Below are positions 4,512 to 24,372 of a stretch of 64,000 nt of DNA, piece after piece (positions within the stretch are counted from its first letter, which is position 1; every line of letters begins with the position of its first letter). The notes below the pieces were generated by a model. That model did no database searches and was not told the origin of the DNA. It saw only the letters and a list, made by a program, of their open reading frames with translations. The stretch covers positions 248,001 through 312,000 of the forward strand of contig JAFLUA010000002.1 of assembly GCA_022508985.1 (NCBI GenBank), written 5' to 3'. Source of the stretch: Muribaculaceae bacterium (GTDB lineage: Bacteria > Bacteroidota > Bacteroidia > Bacteroidales > Muribaculaceae). The position numbers and the translations under genes were made by a program.

Positions 4512-5696
4512 TTATTCAGCCGATTCGAGGGTGCAGATGCTTACGCGGTTCCACGAGTCTTCTTCGAACATATCGCCTATGCCTTGGCCTTCGGCTAAAA
4601 TGCGGCCCTCGGCTATCTTATACTTCGATATGAGAAGATTCTTGACAGCTTGAGCGCGGTCTTCGGCCAATCGGATATTCAAATCGTAACTGCCATCTTT
4701 CGAAGCATAACCTTTGATTGAGACTTTGGCTTCGGGATGTTTCTTGAGATGATCGGCAATCATTTCAACATTGGGCATCTGGTCGGCTGTGACAACTTTG
4801 CTACCCACGCGGAACGTTACAAAACGGACAGAACTCAAGAGCGTGCTCACCGACTCTTCTTTAACGACTTGACGGCGGTTTCTACAGCTATCAAGTTCGC
4901 CATTTAAGGCATTGATTTTTACTTCAAACGCATCGGCTTGGGCTTCGGCAGCGGCTATTTGCGCGCCATAGGTGCTACGCAGTGCGTTGATGCGCTCGTT
5001 TAGTTCATCTATTTCAGTCGAACTGAAAGGATTTGCGCACCAACCACGACCGCCAAAGTGATAGCTTAGGCCCGCAAGTAAGTTGAATGTTGCATACTGC
5101 TTGTCGAAAGCCACTTGTCCTCTACCCTCAAGGTCCCAGAAAACGTATGGTTTAATTGTGATACTAACGCTGTGCGTGGGGTTGAACACGAAGTTCAGAC
5201 CTGCTTTGGCGCCGAAGAAATCGACCTGCTGCGCTTCTTGCACCGTTTCGCCACTCTCATAAGCCTTGAAGAAATAACGCCCCCATCCGGCACCTATTAC
5301 CGTTTCGATAGTAAATGGACGTATCTTGCACGAGCGGCCACCGAAGAGATTGAAAAGGTCGGTAGTGCCAAATATGCCGAGGTATGTCTCGCTATAAGAG
5401 TCGTTGATACCGCCTCCTGTTACAAGGCCGCGATAATAGTCCATTGCACCGTTATTTACAACGGCTGTTGCCTCGAGACCCGTGCCAAAAACGGGCGTGA
5501 GCTGTTTTCTAAGATTAGCGCCGAAGACACCATAAGCCGATTCGAAAAACGGATTATGTGATAGTGGCGTGTTAATACCGCCATCAATGCCTATCGACCA
5601 ATTATCAAAAAATTTTGGCTGATTTATAAATACTTGAGCACTAACCGACAGAACGCCGGTAAAGGCCAAAGCCAATGCTATTGCATATTTTTTCAT
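4512..5696 (-). CDS. OmpA family outer-membrane protein (first of a tandem pair)
   Basis: A 394-residue paralogue of the downstream gene with the same architecture: signal peptide, beta-barrel, coiled coil (about residues 225-275) and OmpA C-terminal domain. The ATG at 5696 (MKKYAIALALAF) gives a proper signal peptide and is preferred over the non-ATG codon four residues upstream. A -7 box is found 49 nt before it. The barrel halves of the two paralogues have diverged while the peptidoglycan-binding halves stay alike, as expected if the exposed loops are under different selection. Confidence 0.88.
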   Translation of the reverse strand: MKKYAIALALAFTGVLSVSAQVFINQPKFFDNWSIGIDGGINTPLSHNPFFESAYGVFGANLRKQLTPVFGTGLEATAVVNNGAMDYYRGLVTGGGINDSYSETYLGIFGTTDLFNLFGGRSCKIRPFTIETVIGAGWGRYFFKAYESGETVQEAQQVDFFGAKAGLNFVFNPTHSVSITIKPYVFWDLEGRGQVAFDKQYATFNLLAGLSYHFGGRGWCANPFSSTEIDELNERINALRSTYGAQIAAAEAQADAFEVKINALNGELDSCRNRRQVVKEESVSTLLSSVRFVTFRVGSKVVTADQMPNVEMIADHLKKHPEAKVSIKGYASKDGSYDLNIRLAEDRAQAVKNLLISKYKIAEGRILAEGQGIGDMFEEDSWNRVSICTLESAE

Positions 5697-13178: not shown

Positions 13179-13934
13179 ATGGAACATACTATCAGCGTAA
13201 AACTGAAAATTTGGCGTCAACGTGGCCCGAAAGAAAAAGGACAGTTCGTCAACTATTCACTCGACAATGTATCGACAGGAAGCAGCTTCCTCGAAATGCT
13301 CGATATGCTCAACCAACAACTCGTTGAGCGCGGCGAAGAACCCGTTGTGTTCGACAACGACTGCCGCGAAGGTATCTGCGGCATGTGCTCGCTATATATC
13401 AACGGACACCCTCACGGGCCCGTACAAGGCATCACAACATGCCAGCTGCACATGCGCAAGTTTAACGACGGCGACACCATAACCATCGAGCCATGGCGCT
13501 CGGCTGCGTTCCCCGTGATTCGCGACCTTATGGTCGACCGCAACGCCTTCGACAAGATTCAACAGGCCGGCGGATACGTGTCGTTCAACTGCGGCGGCGC
13601 GCCCGATGCCAACAGCCAGCCTATCAGCAAAGAGGTGGCCGACACAGCTATGGACTCAGCTACCTGTATCGGTTGCGGCGCCTGCGTGGCCGCTTGCAAG
13701 AACGGCTCTGCTATGCTCTTCGTGTCTGCCAAGGTGAGCCAGTTTGCGCTCCTGCCCCAGGGCCAGGTTGAACGCAAACGTCGCGCGCGCGCAATGGTAC
13801 GCAAGATGGACGAACTCGGTTTCGGCAACTGCACCAACACTGGCGCTTGCGCCGCCGAGTGCCCGAAAAACATACCGCTGAGCAACATAGCACGCCTAAA
13901 CCGCGAGTTTATCAAAGCTAAATGCTCTGAATAA
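13179..13934 (+). CDS. sdhB: Succinate dehydrogenase/fumarate reductase iron-sulfur subunit
   Basis: A 251-residue electron-transfer subunit. Cys 62, 67, 70 and 88 fit the plant-type [2Fe-2S] cluster. Cys 163, 166, 169 and 173 ([11 protein letters not shown]) and Cys 218, 224 and 228 ([11 protein letters not shown]) fit the [4Fe-4S] and [3Fe-4S] clusters. It passes electrons between FAD in SdhA and the quinone site at SdhC. It is the last gene of the operon and is followed by a strong hairpin at 13955-13985. Confidence 0.96.
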
Positions 13935-13954: not shown

Positions 13955-13985
13955 CGAGGGCGCCCCATGTGATGGGGCGCCCTCG
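13955..13985 (+). terminator. Strong hairpin after sdhB
   Basis: A perfect 14-bp GC-rich stem with a GTG loop, 20 nt after the sdhB stop. There is no clear T run, so it may act as an mRNA 3' stabiliser as well as, or instead of, an intrinsic terminator. Confidence 0.7.
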
Positions 13986-14007
13986 TCGCCTTTAGCCGCA
14001 CCACATC

Positions 14008-14482
14008 GAGTCGGATATATAGCCGCGGCGCGTGGTCGCCTCGGAGTGGCGACAATAAGGAAACCCCCAGTCGAGCGCGTCAGCGCGGAGGCTCGGGTAG
14101 GACAAGGTCCCCTCCTCTCTCTTGGCGGCTCTCCGAGCCGCCAATGTCACCATGCCACGGATCATAGAGTCGGATATATAGCCGCGGCGCGTGGTCGCCT
14201 CGGAGAGGCGACAATAAGGGAACCCCCAGTCGAGCGCGTTAGCGCGGAGGCTGGGGTAGGGACGGGGCCTCTCCTCCATCTCGGCGGCTCGGAGAGCCGC
14301 CAATGTCACCATGCCGCGGATCATCGGGTCGGAGACCCGATAATAAGGAAAATCGACGAAGTCGCTTGCGAAGCAAGAAACCCCAGTCGATAGGCTGGGG
14401 TCCACAACGGCATCCCATATAAATCTGTTGAGTCGGAGATTCGACCATATCCATACCGACATTGACGGCTATCCGAGCCGTC
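14008..14482 (+). repeat. GGA-core palindrome cluster A with 159-bp tandem unit
   Basis: A 159-bp unit starts at 14008, 14167 and, in shortened form, 14326. It carries palindromes with arms of about 8 bp around a 3-nt core. GGA cores: 14035-14053 (one mismatch), 14194-14212, 14283-14301, 14323-14341, 14427-14445. TCC cores: 14124-14142 and 14464-14482. Each unit continues with AATAAGG and a second hairpin of the form CCCCAGTC...GGCTGGGG. The open frames across it are translations of the repeat and are not called as genes. This accounts for most of the gene-free 13935-14568 stretch. Confidence 0.85.
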
Positions 14483-14520
14483 GCACATCCGTCGACCCGG
14501 GCGCCCCTCCATCCTCAAAA

Positions 14521-14550
14521 AAAAAGAGGCGCCTCTGGGCGCCTCTTTTT
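14521..14550. terminator. Bidirectional terminator after the first large secreted protein gene
   Basis: A 13-bp stem (AAAAAGAGGCGCC / GGCGCCTCTTTTT) with a 4-nt loop, A-rich on one side and T-rich on the other. It lies 19 nt beyond the stop at 14569. Confidence 0.88.
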
Positions 14551-14568: not shown

Positions 14569-17532
14569 TTATCGGATGATCACTTTCGTTGCTTTGTCGC
14601 CAACAACTTTTATTACTGTTGTGCCGGCGGCGGGGTTAGCGAGTTCGATACCCTGTAGGTTGTAATAGCGAACGCGAGCATTACCCTCTACGAGAGCGTC
14701 GGTGATACCTGTCTGTGTGTTGGTGTTGAAGGTGAAGACTGTTTCTTCCGACTTGGAGTTGCCCGAAGCAGCGTAGAATGTTATTTCATAATCTTCTTCG
14801 CTGGCTGCGAGGATCACTTGGAATGTATAGCTGCCATCTTCGTTAGGTTCAACGGCCACGAATTCGTCGGAGTTCGGAGCCTTGTAGTAGAGTGTTATCA
14901 CGGCGTCGTCGTCAAGACCTTCGCTGCTAACGTTAACGGTGAAATCAACGGTAGCCACTGTGCCATATTCTGACGATTCGAGGGCCGATTCGTATGTGAT
15001 TTCGTCGATAGTGATAGTCGGAGCCGATGTTTCAAGACCCGGAATCACAAAGTCGAGTGTCACTACGGTGTTGAAGTAAGCAACATTCATGAAGTATGTA
15101 AATTCTTCGTATACTTCGCCCCACGGTTCTACATAGAGAACGGTCTTGTCGCCATCGACAAATGCTGTCGCTTTTATGGCGCTTTCAAAATCGGCAACGC
15201 CTACGATACCTGCATATAGCATATTTGTGTCCCAGTCAACCTCAGCCAAGATATCTTCGTCAGAAACGGCTTCGCCTGTCTCGAGATTGATGGTGAAGGT
15301 TAGCGGATTGAGACCTGCGAAGTTATTGATGGTGAGGCGTTGGGTCGCTTCATCGTATGTAGCTGTTACCTCCCATCTTTCCACGTCGTCTAAAATATCC
15401 GGATCATCCATGCCTTGGTTCATATCTACCTGCGCCGTCATATTACCTGTGATTTCTTCACCGGGCTCGTCGGTATCGGCATCGCTACCAAGGCCTTCGA
15501 TATTGAAGTTGTCGAGGGTGATAACGGTGTTATATAGTGCCGGCATGAAATACCAACCAAAATCATCGCCGAAATCCATTCCGGCACCCCACGGCTCAAA
15601 TTCAATAACTACGTTTTCACCATCATTGCGGAGCGTTACTTTTACATCTCCTTTTGTTGCAATGTCGGCGAAGATGTAAGTGTTATCTTCTTCCGTATAT
15701 GCTACTTGTTCATTCGATGCCGTAGCTGTTCCTTTTGCTACATCAACATTGAACACGATAGGATTGAAAGGATAACCTCCTTCAGGATTTATTCCGTAGA
15801 TAGTGAGAGCGCTTTCTTCTTCATCCCAGCTTGCTGTTACTTCGATGTCGTCAATATCATATAGGTCAGGTGTTTCCATTGTGCCCATATTCAGGTCACC
15901 ATCGGTTGTCATATTACCTGTGATATCGCCTTCGGCAGGCTCTTCTTTCACTGCACCGGGGAACCAGATTTTGGCCGACATATTCATTGGGCGATCGTCT
16001 TCGCCCCACCACATGAGGAAACTTCCTTCAGGATCATGAGTATAGCGAGCATCGGGCATTGCGAAGCCATAATCTAATTTGTCTTCGGTATCCATATTGA
16101 GGGTCACTACATCGTCAACAAAGGTAGTAGCCAAGGTGTTTTTATTAAGGAAAGTATTGCCGGTTACTTTCGTCGGGTCATCGTATGAATACTGAGCCAT
16201 CGTAGCTCTAAGGTGGTTCACACAATAAATTTCGGTGAATTTTCTAATTCCATCAGTGGGGTGATCGTATGCAAAACCTGCTCCAACAACGTTAAACAAC
16301 ACGTGTTCGGGGTCGCTTACATCAAATTCGATATAGCCTTGCTTTGTGGGGTGTGTATTCAATTCGGCAGCAGGACCTGCAGCATAGGGATTTACGAGGC
16401 GATAGAGATTTTCGTTCTCGCTGTTTTGTTGCAAGAGCACCTCATATTGGTTTTCGGGCAATGTCTGGTCGATACCAAATGCCGGGAGCACCCAGCCATC
16501 CATAAAGGTAGCGTTGCCGAGGTCGACCCATGCGGGGGTTTGGTCATCGCCACCACCAACTTCATCTTCAACCTGTACGGCCGATACAATTTTGTATGCG
16601 GGTTCGTAGTTCGGGAACATGCCTGGGTTAACAGCCCATGCAAAGCCGAATGAGCCCCAGTTCTTTTCAGCTTCCGATTGGAAATCGATTTCACCTGTTA
16701 CAGAGTTGAACGTAACACCCGAATACGGCGATTGCGGATCCACGCCATAGCCTTCGTTGAAATAGGGATAGAATGTGGTGTTGCCCTCAGCGCCCAGATT
16801 GGGAGTGGTGGTGAAGGTGAGTGCGTTATTCGATGCGTTATAGGTAAAGGGAACAGCGGTTGGGAATTTTGAACTACCTTCTTCGGTGATGGTGTAGTTG
16901 CCGTCTTCGCCTTCTATTTTCACCTTAATCTCATATTTAGCATCGCTATCGTAGGTCTCTTCGATATTGAATATATATGTACCTTCAATAACCTTGTCGC
17001 CTTGCTCGACTACCTCTTCAATCTGCTGGGCTGCAGCTATGATATACTGGGTGTCTTCTTGCTCGTTATAGCCAGTGCTTGAAGCTGTCCAGCAGAATCC
17101 GAGAGTATCCCACCTGTCTATCTGGAAAGAAATAGCACCTGTTGTGGGGTCGAATGTGGTTGTGCTGCTGGTTTCGATCAACTCACCATCAGGCCAACTA
17201 TATTTATAAGGCGAGAAGGCCAGAGGTTGGTTCTCGTCATAAGCGCTGTTGCTACCCTTTTCAAAGGTTAGCTTATTAGTGTTGCTATCAAACGAGAAGG
17301 TAATGTCTGTAAGGAAATGTTCTCCTACGACATCAGTCAGTCGATAATATGTCCCATTTGATTGTGTAATCTTGACTGTGATATCAGCAACCTTATCTTC
17401 GTAGTTGTCATTCAGCGTAAAGGTGTACGTGCCGGGGAGGGTCCACTCGCCATCCGCTACCTTATCGGCTTTAACTGTCCACGAAGTCAGAAGCACAAGC
17501 GCAGTCAGTAGTAATGTGTAAATTTTTTTCAT
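14569..17532 (-). CDS. Large secreted repeat protein with T9SS-like C-terminal tail
   Basis: A 987-residue exported protein: signal peptide at 1-22, then acidic, Thr/Asn-rich beta modules. Two pairs of internal repeats are visible. GTYTFTLND near residue 34 recurs as GTYIFNIEE near 183. ITGNMT...DLNMG near 534 recurs as ITGNMT...DMNQG near 691. An Ig/FnIII-like module spans roughly 845-945. The last 35 residues (RVRYYNLQGIELANP... ending TKVIIR) resemble the Por/T9SS type A sorting signal, so surface delivery is likely. There are no catalytic motifs and the function is unknown. It is transcribed alone, divergently from the next secreted-protein gene. Confidence 0.75.
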   Translation of the reverse strand: MKKIYTLLLTALVLLTSWTVKADKVADGEWTLPGTYTFTLNDNYEDKVADITVKITQSNGTYYRLTDVVGEHFLTDITFSFDSNTNKLTFEKGSNSAYDENQPLAFSPYKYSWPDGELIETSSTTTFDPTTGAISFQIDRWDTLGFCWTASSTGYNEQEDTQYIIAAAQQIEEVVEQGDKVIEGTYIFNIEETYDSDAKYEIKVKIEGEDGNYTITEEGSSKFPTAVPFTYNASNNALTFTTTPNLGAEGNTTFYPYFNEGYGVDPQSPYSGVTFNSVTGEIDFQSEAEKNWGSFGFAWAVNPGMFPNYEPAYKIVSAVQVEDEVGGGDDQTPAWVDLGNATFMDGWVLPAFGIDQTLPENQYEVLLQQNSENENLYRLVNPYAAGPAAELNTHPTKQGYIEFDVSDPEHVLFNVVGAGFAYDHPTDGIRKFTEIYCVNHLRATMAQYSYDDPTKVTGNTFLNKNTLATTFVDDVVTLNMDTEDKLDYGFAMPDARYTHDPEGSFLMWWGEDDRPMNMSAKIWFPGAVKEEPAEGDITGNMTTDGDLNMGTMETPDLYDIDDIEVTASWDEEESALTIYGINPEGGYPFNPIVFNVDVAKGTATASNEQVAYTEEDNTYIFADIATKGDVKVTLRNDGENVVIEFEPWGAGMDFGDDFGWYFMPALYNTVITLDNFNIEGLGSDADTDEPGEEITGNMTAQVDMNQGMDDPDILDDVERWEVTATYDEATQRLTINNFAGLNPLTFTINLETGEAVSDEDILAEVDWDTNMLYAGIVGVADFESAIKATAFVDGDKTVLYVEPWGEVYEEFTYFMNVAYFNTVVTLDFVIPGLETSAPTITIDEITYESALESSEYGTVATVDFTVNVSSEGLDDDAVITLYYKAPNSDEFVAVEPNEDGSYTFQVILAASEEDYEITFYAASGNSKSEETVFTFNTNTQTGITDALVEGNARVRYYNLQGIELANPAAGTTVIKVVGDKATKVIIR

Positions 17533-17721: not shown

Positions 17722-20022
17722 ATGAAGAAAAGCACTTTTATCTTGGCTGTGTGTGCGGGCATAGCCTTATCGGCAGGTGCACAAGGATTGTCTTTGCAGA
17801 AAACAACGCCTGTCAACAAACAGATTACAAGCCGCGACCGCGTTGAGCGCGTAGCAAAAAGCCGAACGATCGCTAAAGGGATCGTTGAAAAAGAGGTTGT
17901 ATTGGAAAATGGCCTCAAAATAAAGATGGTGACCGGCATTCCTTCTCTTGGCAACACTATTAACCCGCGCCGCAAACCAGCCAAAGTGGCATCGACACCG
18001 GAGGGATTCGTCCTTTACGAAGATTTTGAGGCGTGGGACGGCATGGACGACGCTTGGCTGCCCGACGGATGGGCTATCGACCACCGCGACTCGCCCGAGA
18101 GCAACCGCGGGTGGAAGATGACAGAGCCAATGCCGATATTCGACTTTATCGAAAGCAAATGTCTTACCTACGAAATGTTCGACCAAGAGGTTGACGAATG
18201 GGCTATATCTCCCGCTTTTGATGTTTACGAAGGCATGGAGCTCTGTTGGGGTACAATGACAAGCCCTTATTTCTATAACTGGGACTATTTCAACTCTACT
18301 ACCTTTAAGCTCGATAAATTTGAGATCGTAAACGACATCAAGGTAAACATTTCAACCGATGGCGGCGAATCCTGGGAACTACTCTACAGCCACGCCGAAG
18401 AGCTCATTAAGGAAACCGACGGCAACTTCTTTGCCATGTTCGACTATTCGGTACGCCCCTTCTCGGCTTCGCTGGAGAAATATGTCGGCAAGACTATTAA
18501 CGTAGGATTTCAGATTGAGGGTATCGACGGCAACACAACTTTTATCGACGACATATCGGTAGGCCTTCCGCTGACCGGGGCATCGTATCGCCGACCGCTG
18601 AGCAACCTTTTCTTCGGACTCTCGAGCACCGACGAAAATGTGCCGGCGTCAATTATGGCTGGGCCCGTATACAAGCCCATGAAGTACACCAACACTACAA
18701 AGACTTCAAAAGCCGACTATCTGTGGACCTACACCGACACCAGCGGCGAAGAAAAGACGTCGACCGACAAAAACCTCTCTGTAACTTACGAAACCGACTA
18801 CACCAGCGCTGCTACAACGCGTAATAATATGTATCACTACCCGGTTCTATCCGCTTCGTCGGCTGGCACAGCTCCCGACTCTTTCACCTATGGCGGATTC
18901 ATCCAGGCCGGCGGTAGAGGCGAATACGAGCGCTATTTCACCGACACCAAGGATTATGAGGTTGTTGATTTGGGGCTGACCATTATCGACCCATGGACCG
19001 AGGGCTCGGCCACATACGCCGACCTGGCTCTCCCATACTTCGGGTACAACCACGAGTCGGACCGCTATTGGAGCCAGCGCACTTTCGGCGATGAATACGA
19101 CGACGATAACTGGAGCCACCTCGTGAGAATAGGCGACTTATTCTACTCCCCCGATTCGCCTATCGTTATCGACGGCATCCGAACAAACGCTTACGGCAAG
19201 GTGAGCCGCAATGCCAAATTCGTAGCCGAGATATATTTCATCGGTCGCAACTTCGTCATCCCCGACGAACCCAACTTTACGGCTACTTGTACTGGCAACG
19301 ACATAACAATGATCGACCGCGGCGGTACAAGCGACATCCTCTCGTTCAACTTCAAGTTTGATGAGCCGATCGTTATATCTTCCGATATCACCCCGTATTT
19401 CTTCGTTGCTATCGGTGGTTTCCATGACCCCGAAAACGTGGAATATTTCTCTCCCGAGATGTCAAATTATGGCAACCCCAATGGGCTCGCCCTCGGATGG
19501 ATAGGCAAAGAGGTATGCTTCGCCGGTGATATGCTGCCTTCTTATGGCTGGTCGGACGTGTCATATTATGTAAACGACGAACTCGTATCGTTCTACATCA
19601 TGCTCGACGCGACTTTCCCATGGCTTGAAGGCAACGACGAAACCATCAACATTGGTAACGGCAGCTCGGCAAGCATCGAACTCGACAGTTACTACGATGG
19701 CAGCAAGCTCAGCTTCGAAGGACTGCCCGAATGGCTAACTGCCAAGGCTACAGGCCGATACAACAAAACCGTAGTCACTTTCACAACCGCTAACACCATC
19801 CCCGACGACAAAGCCAACGTGGCTATCGTTGGCCCAGGTGTCCGTAAAGAAGTGACGGTGGTGCCTAAAAATGTCGGTGTGAATAATGTGGTGGCGGCTC
19901 CCGCTACCGGCGCTTCTGAGGTTTATACCCTCGACGGACGACGGGTCAACGACAACAACCTCACCCCGGGCATCTACATCAAACGCGAAGGCGCTAAAGC
20001 CACCAAAATATTGGTGAAATAA
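17722..20022 (+). CDS. Secreted protein with choice-of-anchor J-like domain and T9SS-like tail
   Basis: A 766-residue exported protein. The ATG at 17722 gives a signal peptide (MKKSTFILAVCAGIALSAGAQ). After a basic propeptide-like stretch, a jelly-roll domain (about 95-285) shows YEDFEAWDGMDDAWLPDGW and later VGFQIEGIDGNTTFIDDISV, the hallmarks of the choice-of-anchor J (MAM-like) fold. A mixed beta region follows. A short C-terminal module ends in SEVYTLDGRRV...PGIYIKREGAKATKILVK, a T9SS type A-like sorting signal. It is probably a surface adhesin or glycan-binding protein; no catalytic residues are seen. Confidence 0.78.
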   Translation: MKKSTFILAVCAGIALSAGAQGLSLQKTTPVNKQITSRDRVERVAKSRTIAKGIVEKEVVLENGLKIKMVTGIPSLGNTINPRRKPAKVASTPEGFVLYEDFEAWDGMDDAWLPDGWAIDHRDSPESNRGWKMTEPMPIFDFIESKCLTYEMFDQEVDEWAISPAFDVYEGMELCWGTMTSPYFYNWDYFNSTTFKLDKFEIVNDIKVNISTDGGESWELLYSHAEELIKETDGNFFAMFDYSVRPFSASLEKYVGKTINVGFQIEGIDGNTTFIDDISVGLPLTGASYRRPLSNLFFGLSSTDENVPASIMAGPVYKPMKYTNTTKTSKADYLWTYTDTSGEEKTSTDKNLSVTYETDYTSAATTRNNMYHYPVLSASSAGTAPDSFTYGGFIQAGGRGEYERYFTDTKDYEVVDLGLTIIDPWTEGSATYADLALPYFGYNHESDRYWSQRTFGDEYDDDNWSHLVRIGDLFYSPDSPIVIDGIRTNAYGKVSRNAKFVAEIYFIGRNFVIPDEPNFTATCTGNDITMIDRGGTSDILSFNFKFDEPIVISSDITPYFFVAIGGFHDPENVEYFSPEMSNYGNPNGLALGWIGKEVCFAGDMLPSYGWSDVSYYVNDELVSFYIMLDATFPWLEGNDETINIGNGSSASIELDSYYDGSKLSFEGLPEWLTAKATGRYNKTVVTFTTANTIPDDKANVAIVGPGVRKEVTVVPKNVGVNNVVAAPATGASEVYTLDGRRVNDNNLTPGIYIKREGAKATKILVK

Positions 20023-20089: not shown

Positions 20090-20289
20090 CCCGCGCCGCG
20101 TGGTCGCCTCGGATATATAGCCGCGGTATGACAGCCACGGAGCATCGGGTCGGAGATACAGCCGCGGCGCGTGGTCGCCTCGGAGAGGCGACAATAAGGG
20201 CAACCCCTGTCAAGCAAGCCCGTAGGGCGCAGCGCAGGCTGGGGTCCACAACGACATCCCATATAAATATGTCGAGTCGGAGATTCGAC
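20090..20289 (+). repeat. GGA-core palindrome cluster B
   Basis: Related to the 14.0-14.5 kb cluster. Full palindromes are at 20174-20192 and 20271-20289 (8-bp arms around GGA). A hybrid at 20103-20122 joins the left arm GTCGCCTC-GGA to a TATATAGCC flank; elsewhere that flank follows a different left arm. Another left arm (GGGTC-GGA, near 20146) is joined to a TACAGCCGCGG flank. A CCCC...GCTGGGG hairpin follows the first palindrome. It lies downstream of the secreted-protein terminator and before the tRNA terminator. Confidence 0.82.
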
Positions 20290-20316
20290 AATATCCCTAT
20301 CGACATTGTCACAAAA

Positions 20317-20350: not shown

Positions 20351-20351
20351 G

Positions 20352-20425
20352 CGCTTCAAGATGGACTCGAACCAACGACCCTCTGATTAACAGTCAGATG
20401 CTCTAACCGACTGAGCTATTGAAGC
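20352..20425 (-). tRNA. tRNA-Asn (anticodon GTT), second copy
   Basis: A 74-nt cloverleaf: acceptor GCTTCAA/TTGAAGC, anticodon loop CTGTTAA within a 5-bp stem, T loop TTCGAGT. The 3' CCA is not encoded. The T stem (GTTGG/CCATC) has one T-T mismatch, shared with the other copy. Confidence 0.93.
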
Positions 20426-20452
20426 ATTGATATATGTAAAGATAACGTTTTG

Positions 20453-20526
20453 CGCTTCAAGATGGACTCGAACCAACGACCCTCTGATTAACAGTCAGAT
20501 GCTCTAACCGACTGAGCTATTGAAGC
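20453..20526 (-). tRNA. tRNA-Asn (anticodon GTT), first copy
   Basis: Identical in the mature region to the copy at 20352-20425, separated by 27 nt. Both are read from one promoter upstream (20567-20598) to the terminator at 20317-20350. The 3' CCA is not encoded. Confidence 0.93.
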
Positions 20527-20657: not shown

Positions 20658-21794
20658 TTAGCGATGCAACTCTTTCCGCAGCCACAGCGCCAAGATAGGG
20701 TCGCAGATGGCGACCTCTTTTCGCTCTATATCTATCAGTTCCTTTTTCAGCAGGGCCGCCTTGATGATTTTGACATTAGCCGAAGATCCCAGCTGATATT
20801 TATCTAAAATAGCCTTAGAACTGAATTCGCTTTTCACCCCGTCGATAACAGCTCGAAGAAAATTCATCTGATATGACGATAGGCTCTCGGTCTGGCGCTC
20901 AAAGAGGGGCGTATTTTGCTCTATTATATCTTGGCAAGCATCGTTGAAATTCTGTTCTGTTGCACTGCCATCGGTGCGAATCCACACCAACCATGCCAAT
21001 TGTTGAACATACGATGAATGATTGTCGACAATCTCGCATATCTGTCGTGCCAATTCCGGCGAAATACTTTTGCCGGTAACTTCAAATCGATCACAGATAT
21101 AATCGACCCAATTGGCGGTGGATATCTTGGGCAAATAAATTGCATCGCCAAATTTGTAAAAAGGCAAACTCCTCTTCTCAAAAAGCTCACTCATAAGGTG
21201 TTTCCGACTGCCGAAGAGGCAATATGACACCGATTGTTGTAGCTGCCACACTCCTCGAAGACGCTTTTGCAACGTCGTGGAATCTTTAAACTCACCTATC
21301 TGCTGAAACTCATCGATGCACACCACTATTCTGCACTTTTTCTTTTGTGCTATTCGTTCGGGCAGCTGCAAGATGTCGTCAACGTCGGTAGCCTTGTCGT
21401 TAAGTTCCAGCGATATCGAAAAATCAGTCATAGGATCGGGGCCGAGAGATATTTTCGGACTGATCCGCGACAGAAACGCCTTCGCATTTTCGAGCCACTC
21501 TTCTAACTTCGACGATGTCTGCTTAAGCACTGCCGTGGCCAATGCATTATAAAACTCTTGCGCACTACGACACGAAAAGATATCTAAGTAAACGATTTTC
21601 AAACTCTCCGATTGAGCAAGTGTCGACACCTTTCGCACCAACGACGTTTTGCCCCAACGACGTGGTGATATTAATATCGTATTTATCCCATGCTGAAAGT
21701 TCTGTAAAATGCGGGCGGTCTCAGTTTCTCTGTCGGTGAAATTCTCATTTGAGGTGGCCACACCGAATACAAATGGCTTCTGTTCTATCTTCAT
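20658..21794 (-). CDS. AAA ATPase of the archaeal-type/STAND-like ATP-binding family
   Basis: A 378-residue protein. The start is the ATG at 21794, because the longer frame would overlap a canonical promoter. Walker A is SPRRWGKTS at about 43-51. Walker B is IVVCIDEF near 160. A sensor-like FGSRKHLM follows around 195, and the C-terminal third resembles a winged helix (LRAVIDGVKSEFSSKAILDKYQL). This layout fits the COG1672-type ATPases common as single genes in Bacteroidetes and archaea. Their role is unknown; a regulatory or defence-like switch has been proposed for relatives. It is transcribed alone between tRNA-Asn and a repeat cluster, with no partner gene. Confidence 0.85.
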   Translation of the reverse strand: MKIEQKPFVFGVATSNENFTDRETETARILQNFQHGINTILISPRRWGKTSLVRKVSTLAQSESLKIVYLDIFSCRSAQEFYNALATAVLKQTSSKLEEWLENAKAFLSRISPKISLGPDPMTDFSISLELNDKATDVDDILQLPERIAQKKKCRIVVCIDEFQQIGEFKDSTTLQKRLRGVWQLQQSVSYCLFGSRKHLMSELFEKRSLPFYKFGDAIYLPKISTANWVDYICDRFEVTGKSISPELARQICEIVDNHSSYVQQLAWLVWIRTDGSATEQNFNDACQDIIEQNTPLFERQTESLSSYQMNFLRAVIDGVKSEFSSKAILDKYQLGSSANVKIIKAALLKKELIDIERKEVAICDPILALWLRKELHR

Positions 21795-21815
21795 AATAAT
21801 TTGTTTTTCTGGCAA

Positions 21816-21847
21816 CAAATATAAGTAATAATTTTATTACTCACAAA
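21816..21847 (-). promoter_or_regulatory. Canonical promoter of the AAA ATPase
   Basis: On the minus strand, -33 TTTG (21844-21847), a 20-nt spacer and -7 TATATTTG (21816-21823). The predicted leader is about 15 nt. Confidence 0.75.
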
Positions 21848-21872
21848 TTTATTACTAATAAACTATGTCACC

Positions 21873-22128
21873 AGTCGCGGAGCGGCTACACCATGATTAG
21901 CCGGGTACTGCGAGCACCGCGAGCTGTGCCCGGATCAAGACCAATAAATATAATCGTGTGCCGGAGGTACACCACTTCGCGACTATGGAGCAGCCGCGGA
22001 TCATCGAGTCGGATACAGAACCGCGTCGCGTGGTCACCTCGGAGAGGCGACAATAAGCCCCCCGTCAAGCAAGCCCGTAGGGCGAAGCGCAGGCTGGGGT
22101 TAGCCTTATTTGTGGAGCTCCGACCCAC
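21873..22128 (+). repeat. GGA-core palindrome cluster C
   Basis: Palindromes around GGA at 21873-21887 (6-bp arms), 21956-21972 (7-bp arms) and 22033-22051 (one mismatch). A long 8-bp inverted repeat without the core has arms 21901-21908 and 21926-21933. The region shares with cluster B the CCCGTCAAGCAAGCCCGTAG stretch leading to GGCTGGGG, and a degenerate TCC-core palindrome closes it (22112-22128). It fills most of the gap between the ATPase promoter and the next secreted-protein promoter. Confidence 0.8.
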
Positions 22129-22350: not shown

Positions 22351-24372
22351 ATGAAGAAATTTTTTACTCTTCTTTTGCTTTGCTCTCTTGGGGCGTTTGC
22401 AGCAAGCGCACTAATACCCGACGAACCAACCAACGTAGAGGGAACAATCTTAAAAGCCGATGATGGCAGTTTCTATGCTCACATCACCGGTAATGCCCCT
22501 ACTCGAGGTCGCGAGGGCTGGAATTACTCTGACCTGGAAGAGAACGTAAACATCAAGATTACAGCAACGTACTATGATGAAGATCGTGTTTATCACGACT
22601 TAGACCAGATTGCGCTTATCGAAGATGTTGAGCCGGGTGCAGCTTTTGAATACGACGTCAATGATCTAACTAAAGGCTACGAATACAATTTCAATGTTTA
22701 TGCCGTAAATGAAGATGGCGAAAGTTGGGGGGCCTACATTTACAATCTCTATTGCGGCTTCAAGCCGGCTATCCCAACTATTAAAACCGAACTTAGCGGT
22801 GACAACCTCGAAGTCGTAACTCTCACCATCGTCACACCGACGGCATATACTAACGAAATCGAAATAGAAGAGGATCTCACCGTTAAAATTACACATGTCG
22901 TTGGATACTCTTACGACCAAGATGTTGTCAAAACTTTCGAAGACGTAACACCCGGCGAGACTCTCACAGTTCAACACGAAGTTAGCTCCGACGAGCTTTC
23001 TAAAAACCACACTTATTTCGTTGTGGCAAGCACAGAAGAAGGCACCAGTGAGCGCGCCCAAACATACGTCTTCGTTGGCTACGATATCCCCGGCACGCCC
23101 GCCGAAGCTACTGCCGAAGTTAATGCCGACGGCTCTGTGACTGTTACATGGGAGGCTCCGGAAGAAGGCACCAACAAAGGACAACTCCGCCAACCTATTT
23201 ACTATGATGTTGTGCGCAGCGACAATAAAGTTATTGCTGAGAAAACAACCGAGCTTTCTGTTGTTGACCCGGCCGACGACTTTACAGCCCAGACCGAAGT
23301 TTACTACACCGTTTCGGCTTATAACAACGACGGCAAAGCTGAATATTCGAGAAGGACTACCGACCGCGTTATCGTAGGTCCGGCATCAAAACTGCCTTTT
23401 GCCGACAGCTTCAGTACTCATACCGAAAGTTGGGGTTACTACTATTACTATCCTAACAAACTTTGGAGCTACCCTAACTGGTATCTGACAGACAAAGAAC
23501 TATATACAGGCATCTCTGCCGTAAATTATGTCGCAGGCGATGACGGCGATGTAGAAGTGCCCGATGGCATGATCTACGCTCCTTTTACCACATACAACTA
23601 TTGGGGTGACTATGTACCACAAACATATGTGTTGACAAGTGGTATGCTCAACTTTGAAGAAGCTGTTTATCCCGTTGCTTCTCTCTACTATGTACCGCTG
23701 GTTGGTGCTAATACATTCGACGTTGTTTACAACGAAGGCGAAACGACAACCACAGTAGCTTCATTCGAAGTTGGTGAAGGTGCCGTTGAAGATGGTGAGC
23801 CAAACTGGGTTCGCATCTTCGTTCCGCTGACAGACCTTGTAGGAAAGAACAACGTAACATTTGGCATCAAAACATACGAAGCCGAAGAAATGGAAGACAA
23901 CTGCGATGGCCTCTACATCGACGAAATCCTCATCGACGACTATCCATATGTCGACGCTCCCACCGCTACTGTTGAAAACGAAACAAAAGTTGTCACTATT
24001 ACTTGGGAAGATCCTTCGACAGCAACTCAGACCGTTGACCACTATGAAGTTATCGTAAACGGCGAGACCGTGGCCGAAGACCTCACCGAAACAAGCTACG
24101 AATTCGACGGCGTTGAAGGTGAAACTTACGAAATCGCTGTTGTAGCTGTATACGAAGATGGTGAAATTGAGACTCCCGCTTCTGAAACAGTATCTGTTAC
24201 TGTTAAATCGACTGCGCTCAGCAACATCTCGCTCAGCGATAACGAAGCCTCTGTTGAGTTGTTCAACCTACAGGGTATCCGCATCGAGAACCCCGCAGCC
24301 GGCACAACCGTTATCCGCCGTGCTACCCTCACCGACGGCAGTGTTACAACAGCTAAAGTTGTAGTTCGCTAA
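22351..24372 (+). CDS. Secreted FnIII-like protein with T9SS-like tail
   Basis: A 673-residue exported protein: signal peptide at 1-20, then beta-sandwich modules. FnIII-like units appear at about 250-345 (PAEATAEVNADGSVTVTWEAP) and 540-625 (TKVVTITWEDPS...YEIAVVAVYEDG). Between them lies a jelly-roll-like domain (about 350-530) ending in CDGLYIDEILIDDY. The last 40 residues (VELFNLQGIRIENPAAGTTV, ending AKVVVR) mimic the tail of the 987-residue protein, a likely T9SS sorting signal. It is probably a surface or extracellular binding protein. It is co-transcribed with the next gene (28-nt gap). Confidence 0.78.
   Translation: MKKFFTLLLLCSLGAFAASALIPDEPTNVEGTILKADDGSFYAHITGNAPTRGREGWNYSDLEENVNIKITATYYDEDRVYHDLDQIALIEDVEPGAAFEYDVNDLTKGYEYNFNVYAVNEDGESWGAYIYNLYCGFKPAIPTIKTELSGDNLEVVTLTIVTPTAYTNEIEIEEDLTVKITHVVGYSYDQDVVKTFEDVTPGETLTVQHEVSSDELSKNHTYFVVASTEEGTSERAQTYVFVGYDIPGTPAEATAEVNADGSVTVTWEAPEEGTNKGQLRQPIYYDVVRSDNKVIAEKTTELSVVDPADDFTAQTEVYYTVSAYNNDGKAEYSRRTTDRVIVGPASKLPFADSFSTHTESWGYYYYYPNKLWSYPNWYLTDKELYTGISAVNYVAGDDGDVEVPDGMIYAPFTTYNYWGDYVPQTYVLTSGMLNFEEAVYPVASLYYVPLVGANTFDVVYNEGETTTTVASFEVGEGAVEDGEPNWVRIFVPLTDLVGKNNVTFGIKTYEAEEMEDNCDGLYIDEILIDDYPYVDAPTATVENETKVVTITWEDPSTATQTVDHYEVIVNGETVAEDLTETSYEFDGVEGETYEIAVVAVYEDGEIETPASETVSVTVKSTALSNISLSDNEASVELFNLQGIRIENPAAGTTVIRRATLTDGSVTTAKVVVR

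What the first reader, a model, noticed from the sequence alone, without database searches (positions are those of the whole stretch)
14008..14482. Family of short palindromes with an asymmetric GGA core in a 159-bp tandem repeat
At least seven palindromes here share arms of about 8 bp around a 3-nt core, but the arm sequences differ: GTCGCCTC, GGCGGCTC, ATCGGGTC, GTTGAGTC and GACGGCTA each pair with their own complement. Different arms that remain self-complementary indicate selection for hairpin or cruciform structure rather than for one sequence. The unit repeats at exactly 159 bp (14008, 14167, 14326). I know of no named Bacteroidales repeat with this description; an undescribed extragenic palindromic element is plausible.
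Basis: seen in the sequence. Interest (0 to 1): 0.7.

Follow-up and report, generated by a model that had tools for sequence, protein, structure and literature searches.

The report
Transposase-linked hairpin repeats in gut Bacteroidales
These short palindromes are pieces of a small, probably once-mobile DNA element built like the hairpin sequences that flank a little-studied family of single-strand DNA transposase genes in related bacteria, which gives that family a likely DNA partner.

Summary
Seven GGA/TCC-core palindromes lie at 14035-14482: four perfect, three with one or two imperfect pairs. The 159-bp unit repeats twice (89% identical), not three times. Perfect GGA/TCC palindromes exceed chance: 5 in the window, 0.4 expected.

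They belong to a composite element: GGA-loop hairpin H1, spacer, CCCC...GGGG hairpin H2, then hairpin H3. The genome has about 13 clusters and no detected Y1 transposase; 33 of 49 genus genomes have one, and the same plan flanks several of these genes in inverted orientation. A covariance model trained only on dispersed copies finds an inverted pair around a transposase gene in another genus.

Around 79 named transposase genes, hairpins are ten times denser than beyond 1 kb, and 193 of 270 have GNA or complementary loops. GNA loops form very stable DNA mini-hairpins (PMC4686876). Of 115 proteins, 109 carry Y---Q--HH, the signature of TnpA-Y1 subclass 1.2, published as lacking REP elements (PMC6006769).

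Verdict: REP/BIME-like, non-autonomous elements cognate to that subclass. Mobilisation by TnpA is inferred.

The parts
13995..14495 (+). Cluster 1: array of composite hairpin elements between two convergent ORFs (13179-13934 + and 14569-17532 -)
   Evidence: outer limits approximate
14004..14162 (+). 159-bp unit, first copy
   Evidence: 89% identical to the next
14163..14321 (+). 159-bp unit, second copy
14035..14053 (+). H1, first copy, loop GGA, 7 of 8 pairs
14065..14097 (+). H2, first copy, CCCCAGTC...GGCTCGGG
14122..14144 (-). H3, first copy, perfect, in TCC orientation (flipped relative to the second copy)
14194..14212 (+). H1, second copy, loop GGA, perfect
14224..14256 (+). H2, second copy, CCCCAGTC...GGCTGGGG
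14283..14301 (+). H3, second copy, loop GGA, perfect
14323..14341 (+). H1 of a third element, other arms, loop GGA, perfect
14355..14377 (+). Optional module with GAC-GAA-GTC and CTTGC-GAA-GCAAG, between H1 and H2
   Evidence: seen also in other own-genome copies
14381..14400 (+). H2 of the third element, short form
14427..14445 (+). Further GGA-loop palindrome, 6 of 8 pairs plus two G.T
14464..14482 (-). Further palindrome in TCC orientation, 7 of 8 pairs
20096..20310 (+). Cluster 2, between an ORF ending at 20022 (+) and tRNA-Asn at 20351 (-)
   Evidence: limits approximate
20174..20192 (+). H1 in cluster 2, perfect
20204..20244 (+). H2 in cluster 2
20270..20290 (+). H3-like GGA palindrome in cluster 2
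21868..22110 (+). Cluster 3, between divergent ORFs (20658-21818 - and 22351-24372 +)
   Evidence: limits approximate
21874..21972 (+). Second family of the same plan: GTCGC-GGA-GCGGC, CCGGGTAC...GTGCCCGG, GTGTGCC-GGA-GGTACAC (imperfect arms)
   Evidence: reading of the sequence, not found by model R1
22033..22051 (+). H1 in cluster 3, 7 of 8 pairs
22059..22099 (+). H2 in cluster 3

Best explanation
The palindromes are hairpins of a REP/BIME-like, non-autonomous element. A unit has a GGA-loop hairpin (H1), a spacer, a GC-rich hairpin starting with CC (H2) and another GGA-loop hairpin (H3). In related genomes the same plan flanks genes for small Y1 (HUH) transposases of the Y---Q--HH type, in mirror orientation (shown). 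I infer that such a TnpA recognises the hairpins as single-stranded DNA, probably by the GNA loop and the sequence at the foot of H2, cuts and rejoins them during replication, and so spreads and reshuffles units in intergenic DNA. Arms can drift while they stay paired because stem, loop and spacing are read rather than one sequence (inferred). The window's genome shows no such gene, so its copies are relics or were moved in trans (inferred).
For: Own genome: 36 places at E<=1, 21 at E<=0.01, about 13 clusters. Compensatory changes. Transposase flanked by inverted H1-H2-H3 in G031. Model R1, built from 10 own-genome and 2 G006 copies with no transposase flank, finds both members of an inverted pair around a 147-aa TnpA in another genus, and lies within 500 bp of a Y1 gene in G031 and G024. 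In G006 a unit H1-H2-H3-H3'-H2'-H1' without a gene occurs at 11 aligned sites and at one in G013. 79 named loci: 5.09 hairpins/kb near against 0.49/kb far; GNA/TNC loops 193 of 270 near, 54 of 253 far; left 72 GNA and 20 TNC, right 22 and 79. Middle loop base follows the TnpA tree: 28 changes, shuffled mean 40.3, 0 of 2000. In Chryseobacterium caseinilyticum the flank element is at 21 places, 16 of them over 5 kb from the gene. GNA loops make exceptionally stable DNA mini-hairpins (PMC4686876, passages).
Against: No TnpA was found whose flanks carry the window's exact arms. The own genome has no Y1 gene, so the link there is by homology of plan only. 36 of 115 loci have no perfect GNA hairpin with arms of 6 or more within 350 bp; 10 of 37 genus loci show no flanking inverted repeat above score 10, some at contig ends; 5 weak Y1 loci (L131-L135) showed no such hairpin. 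Near regions are mostly intergenic and far ones mostly coding, so density is a soft control. A[AG]CC at the expected distance is in 80 of 226 near hairpins but also in 14 of 54 far ones. In the genus set GGA/TCC is also the commonest loop far from the gene (21 of 98), which may be further copies. In a Muribaculaceae MAG the flank element is at only 4 places, two beside the gene. No cutting or movement was observed.
Confidence: 0.8

Rival explanations
1. The elements act as RNA: terminators or mRNA-stabilising 3' structures of the neighbouring genes, and the link to transposases is incidental.
For: Clusters 1 and 2 lie between convergent genes. REP elements of other bacteria are known to have such effects (abstract of PMC3733652, listing).
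Against: Cluster 3 lies between divergent ORFs. No T-run follows H1 or H3. Separate terminator-like hairpins are present at 13955-13985 and 14521-14550. Mirror-image placement round transposase genes is not explained.
Confidence: 0.1
2. The repeats are decayed ends of one ordinary IS200/IS605 insertion sequence, with no REP-like life of their own.
For: The linked proteins are closest to IS200-type TnpA: NCBIfam IS200 cut-off passed by 4 of 5, REP-transposase cut-off failed by 5 of 5; best solved match is ISHp608 transposase.
Against: Flanks are inverted rather than same-strand; gene-less units and single units are dispersed; published subclass 1.2 genes have low copy number (PMC6006769).
Confidence: 0.08
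3. Chance palindromes in GC-rich intergenic DNA, amplified only by a local tandem duplication.
For: Units 1 and 2 are a tandem copy, so their hairpins are not independent.
Against: 5 against 0.4 expected; copies in about 13 clusters; matches in 27 of 198 family genomes at E<=1e-4, own genome included; covariation.
Confidence: 0.02

Closest known systems
REP / BIME / REPIN elements with TnpA-REP (RAYT) transposases
   Same: Dispersed intergenic palindromes, mosaic and inverted arrangements, families linked to a Y1 HUH transposase gene that they flank (PMC6006769, PMC8266576, passages).
   Different: Canonical 5' GT[AG]G foot is not the rule here: within 6 nt of the H1-type foot in 4 of 226 hairpins; at the foot of H2 the consensus is NTA[AG], GTAG itself in 5 of 57. 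GNA triloop and two-stem plan. Linked proteins fail the REP-transposase cut-off.
TnpA-Y1 subclass 1.2 (Quentin et al. 2018, PMC6006769)
   Same: Length about 147-153 aa, Y---Q--HH in 109 of 115, low copy number in the genomes seen, Bacteroidetes.
   Different: The paper's table lists no REP for this subclass and the text says generally no terminal IS200 structures; here 79 of 115 loci have GNA hairpins within 350 bp. Many of my proteins lack the published WQ motif (30 of 115 have it). Cyanobacteria, named in the paper, are not among my 79 loci by their titles.
IS200/IS605 insertion sequences (IS608, ISDra2)
   Same: Protein family; hairpins recognised as single-stranded DNA by TnpA (PMC8266576, passages).
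   Different: Ends here are inverted copies and occur without the gene.
CGTC-tagged palindromic repeats (Di Nocera et al. 2013, PMC3733652)
   Same: Short palindromes, reported also from Bacteroidetes (passages).
   Different: Those have a CGTC tag, loops of 4-5 nt and no transposase association; these have a 3-nt loop and the association.
MITE / PATE-type miniature elements (PATE recalled, from no call)
   Same: Gene-less units with the ends of a transposon; the G006 unit H1-H2-H3-H3'-H2'-H1'.
   Different: No sequence relation tested.

Membership tests
REP elements (class 2 TnpA-REP type) | Palindrome preceded by GT[AG]G at the 5' foot | tested here: not met
   4 of 226 near hairpins within 6 nt of the foot; GTAG at the H2 foot in 5 of 57
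REP elements (class 2 TnpA-REP type) | Multiple dispersed intergenic copies | tested here: met
   About 13 clusters at E<=0.01 in the own genome; 15 of 18 matches checked overlap no ORF of 150 aa or more, the other 3 overlap only an ORF within the array
REP elements (class 2 TnpA-REP type) | Flank their transposase gene (REPtron) | tested here: met
   In relatives, not in the own genome: G031, G119, 79 named loci
REP elements (class 2 TnpA-REP type) | Linked protein is a REP-associated tyrosine transposase | tested here: not met
   NF047646 below its cut-off in 5 of 5 proteins; NF033573 (IS200) above in 4 of 5
TnpA-Y1 subclass 1.2 (the linked protein) | Y---Q--HH motif | tested here: met
   109 of 115; the 6 others include truncated or short frames
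TnpA-Y1 subclass 1.2 (the linked protein) | WQ motif | tested here: inconclusive
   30 of 115 WQ, 79 another residue, 6 not read
TnpA-Y1 subclass 1.2 (the linked protein) | Position in the published tree | not tested
   The published reference sequences were not placed in my tree
IS200/IS605 insertion sequence | Hairpins of the same strand at both ends, no terminal inverted repeats (recalled) | tested here: not met
   Left 72 GNA and 20 TNC, right 22 GNA and 79 TNC
IS200/IS605 insertion sequence | Y1 HUH transposase | tested here: met
   PF01797 in 33 of 49 genus genomes, own genome without; ISHp608 transposase E 4.1e-15
Any Rfam RNA family | Match above the gathering score | tested here: not met
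   Only two tRNAs in the window
REP/IS200-like mobile element | Cutting and strand transfer by TnpA | not testable with these tools
   Needs biochemistry

The most novel reading that the evidence does not exclude
A further kind of REP-transposase partnership: Y1 transposases of the Y---Q--HH type, found here beside loci of Bacteroidota, Verrucomicrobia, Planctomycetes and Lentisphaerae, read GNA-triloop DNA mini-hairpins placed at a set distance from a second stem with an NTA[AG] foot. The arms are free to change as long as they pair; the DNA-specific loop and the spacing are the code. The window's genome keeps a stranded population of such elements after loss of the enzyme.
Probability: 0.6. 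Interest if true: 0.75.

Novelty: new variant of a known kind. Interest (0 to 1): 0.62.

Why it matters
TnpA-Y1 subclass 1.2 was described as IS200-like but without IS properties and without REP elements (PMC6006769). The architecture found here supplies a likely DNA substrate for such enzymes and makes a clear prediction (GNA loop, paired stem, fixed spacing) that one in vitro cleavage assay can test. It also explains a scattered repeat family in gut Bacteroidales, and the loop signature gives a simple way to look for such elements elsewhere.

Tried and rejected
Considered and dropped: a known Rfam RNA (only two tRNAs); a canonical GT[AG]G REP with a REP-type transposase; pure terminators (cluster 3 lies between divergent ORFs); chance.

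Counts corrected on the way. In some searches three loci (L031, L033, L040) were read on the wrong strand; one search repeats the count: GGA/TCC 51 of 141 hairpins within 400 bp, 17 of 37 loci. Of 62 Y1 places listed I examined 42; five weak ones (L131-L135) showed no GGA/TCC hairpin and were dropped before later counts; L102 was fetched and not examined. The 79 loci are the best kept of at least 566, so biased towards my alignment. L031 was dropped from pooled counts as a duplicate of L136; other overlaps between the genus and named sets were not excluded. For the tree 110 of 115 proteins were used (L029, L123 and short ones dropped), with loop labels for 83. The empty-site script could not read 9 of 30 loci; my note says 'no elements in 21, 8 not readable', which is wrong: 20 other-genome loci were read and 9. 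One search showed that G006 has an element of the same plan with other arms at this very site. So 28 of 29 relatives show no array there and one does; two others show one isolated palindrome; L228 had only 333 bases. 30 loci were given of 43 genomes with a match. One search failed on a file name and was redone. (no match for A2 in the own genome) carries the tool's own warning that an empty answer without a positive control shows little; PF01797 had controls.

Literature searches. None listed a paper that by title or abstract describes these repeats or REP elements for subclass 1.2; only open-licence papers are held. PMC6006769: passages and section 12. PMC3733652: passages. PMC8266576: abstract, outline and passages. 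PMC4686876: abstract and passages. PMC11194056, which holds the word RAYT 15 times, was seen only in the listing.

Full report
What is there. The window is G000:C11:248001-312000 of a 2.07-Mb genome in 18 contigs, 99.94% complete. A genus member, G012, has a contig of the same length (41,219) as the record of Porphyromonadaceae bacterium UBA7176, and other close hits are Duncaniella, so a Muribaculaceae host is my inference. Between convergent ORFs (13179-13934 and 14569-17532) lie seven palindromes with a GGA or TCC core, four perfect and three imperfect. Perfect GGA/TCC palindromes with arms of 6 or more number 5 in the window against 0.4 expected. Two 159-bp units stand in tandem at 89% identity. 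Two more clusters lie at about 20096-20310 and 21868-22110.

Anatomy. The copies share a plan: H1 (arms round GGA), AATAAGG and a few bases, H2 (CCCCAGTC...GGCTGGGG with a variable middle), a spacer, then H3 (again GGA, followed by AATGTC in several copies). Some copies have an extra module between H1 and H2 that contains GCGAAGC. The two tandem units differ in the orientation of the H3 core (TCC against GGA) though their surroundings run the same way, as if the hairpin alone had flipped. Model R1 (12 rows) finds 36 places in the own genome at E<=1 and 21 at E<=0.01, which I group into about 13 clusters. Of 18 matches checked, 15 overlap no ORF of 150 aa or more and 3 overlap only an ORF lying in the array.

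Pairing is kept under change. In the 12 rows, chosen by me from similarity hits, H1 has four of eight pairs with changes on both sides, and the whole structure has 8 such cells against 2.2 in shuffles; slid partners give at most 3. In 30 half-units of G006 and G013, 98.4% of cells pair and 51 are changed on both sides, all in H2, against 20.6 in shuffles and 0-2 when slid. Two of the five measures there do not exceed the shuffles (pairs with double change 4 against 3.8; further types 10 against 10.4), and H1 hardly varies in that set.

The transposase. The own genome shows no Y1 transposase (with positive controls), whereas 33 of 49 genus genomes do. In G031 the gene is flanked on both sides, in mirror orientation, by elements of this plan; read inwards the right one is GAGGGTC-GGA-GACCCTC, AAATAATGATAGAA, CCCCAGGC...GCCTGGGG. 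G024 has similar flanks. R1, which contains no transposase flank, finds both members of an inverted pair round a 147-aa TnpA in another genus, G119:C134. In G006 a unit H1-H2-H3-H3'-H2'-H1' without a gene was aligned at 11 sites, and one in G013; outside the unit the sequences do not align, apart from a short AT-rich motif near about half of them. At the site of cluster 1, 28 of 29 other-genome loci show no such array; G006 has one of the same plan with other arms.

The wider rule. For 79 named loci (the best of at least 566), perfect hairpins with arms of 6 or more and 3-nt loops number 270 in 53,075 bases within 350 bp of the gene (5.09/kb) and 253 in 516,076 bases beyond 1 kb (0.49/kb); 70 of 79 loci have at least one near. 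GNA or TNC loops are 193 of 270 near and 54 of 253 far. Left flanks hold 72 GNA and 20 TNC, right flanks 22 and 79. The closing pair is C-G in 134, T-A in 57 and A-T in 2 of 193. Near DNA is mostly intergenic and far DNA mostly coding, so density is a soft control; loop identity and mirror orientation are stronger. Over 115 loci, 79 have a near GNA hairpin; A[AG]CC starts within the expected window after 80 of 226 of them, but also after 14 of 54 far ones, which may be dispersed copies. A second stem starting with CC follows 57 of 226, against 29 of 575 random positions; its foot reads NTA[AG]. The middle loop base follows the TnpA tree: 28 changes against 40.3 in shuffles, 0 of 2000; the closing pair 11 against 15.5, 2 of 2000; shared base composition of relatives could contribute. 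In Chryseobacterium caseinilyticum the flanking element is at 21 places, 16 of them over 5 kb from the gene; in a Muribaculaceae MAG at only 4, two beside the gene.

Why GGA. GNA loops with G-C stems make extraordinarily stable DNA mini-hairpins with a G-A pair in the loop; the GCGAAGC fragment melts at 78 C (PMC4686876, passages). This points to single-stranded DNA as the working form, which suits a Y1 HUH enzyme.

Comparison with the known. The linked proteins match IS200-type TnpA: NCBIfam IS200 above cut-off in 4 of 5 and REP-transposase below cut-off in 5 of 5; best solved match ISHp608 transposase, E 4.1e-15. Y---Q--HH is present in 109 of 115, the signature given for subclass 1.2 by PMC6006769, whose table gives no REP for it and whose text says it generally lacks IS200-like end structures. 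GNA hairpins flank 21 of 30 loci with the published WQ motif, 54 of 79 with another residue and 4 of 6 unread. The GT[AG]G foot that defines the described REP families is not met. So the elements work like REP/BIME elements but are not members of the described GT[AG]G kind.

Mechanism by status. Shown: dispersal, composite plan, pairing kept under change, mirror-image flanking of Y1 genes in relatives, GNA loops, gene-less multi-site units in a relative. Inferred: recognition of loop and foot by TnpA, single-strand cutting and rejoining, movement in trans, loss of the enzyme from this genome. Not shown: the cut site, present activity, and a transposase with the window's exact arms at its flanks.

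Noticed in passing
L020 (G000:C13:130000-134000), 1352-2431: One element is split by about 1.06 kb flanked by a repeated CAGTCGAGCGCGATAGC (17 nt, at 1352 and 2414). The insert holds minus-strand ORFs of 256 and 94 aa that look AbiE-like to me (recalled, not searched).
   Followed up: partly
window 14122-14144 and 14283-14301: The H3 hairpin has TCC in one tandem copy and GGA in the other although the flanks run the same way, as if the palindrome had been inverted on its own.
   Followed up: no
L245-L262 (G006, G013), about 15-45 nt outside the H1 foot: A motif like TCAATTTGAAATTAA recurs outside about half of the gene-less units; target preference or part of a larger end is unknown.
   Followed up: no
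L023 (G000:C12), 4590-4745: The optional module GACGAAGTCGCTTGAGAAGCAAGAAACC is itself tandemly repeated with an AT-rich filler.
   Followed up: no
window 21874-21972: A second element family of the same plan with other arms and an H2 starting CCGGGTAC, next to the first family in cluster 3; related sequence is in L021 and L024.
   Followed up: partly
window 20351-20526: Two tandem tRNA-Asn (gtt) genes with equal Rfam scores beside cluster 2.
   Followed up: no
window 13955-13985: The hairpin after the upstream ORF has no T-run, whereas several relatives have one at the matching place.
   Followed up: no
L009 (G023), about 1500-1530: The optional-module sequence ATCGACGAAGTCGCTTGCGAAGCAAGAA occurs alone in another genus member, 93% identical over 39 nt.
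   Followed up: no
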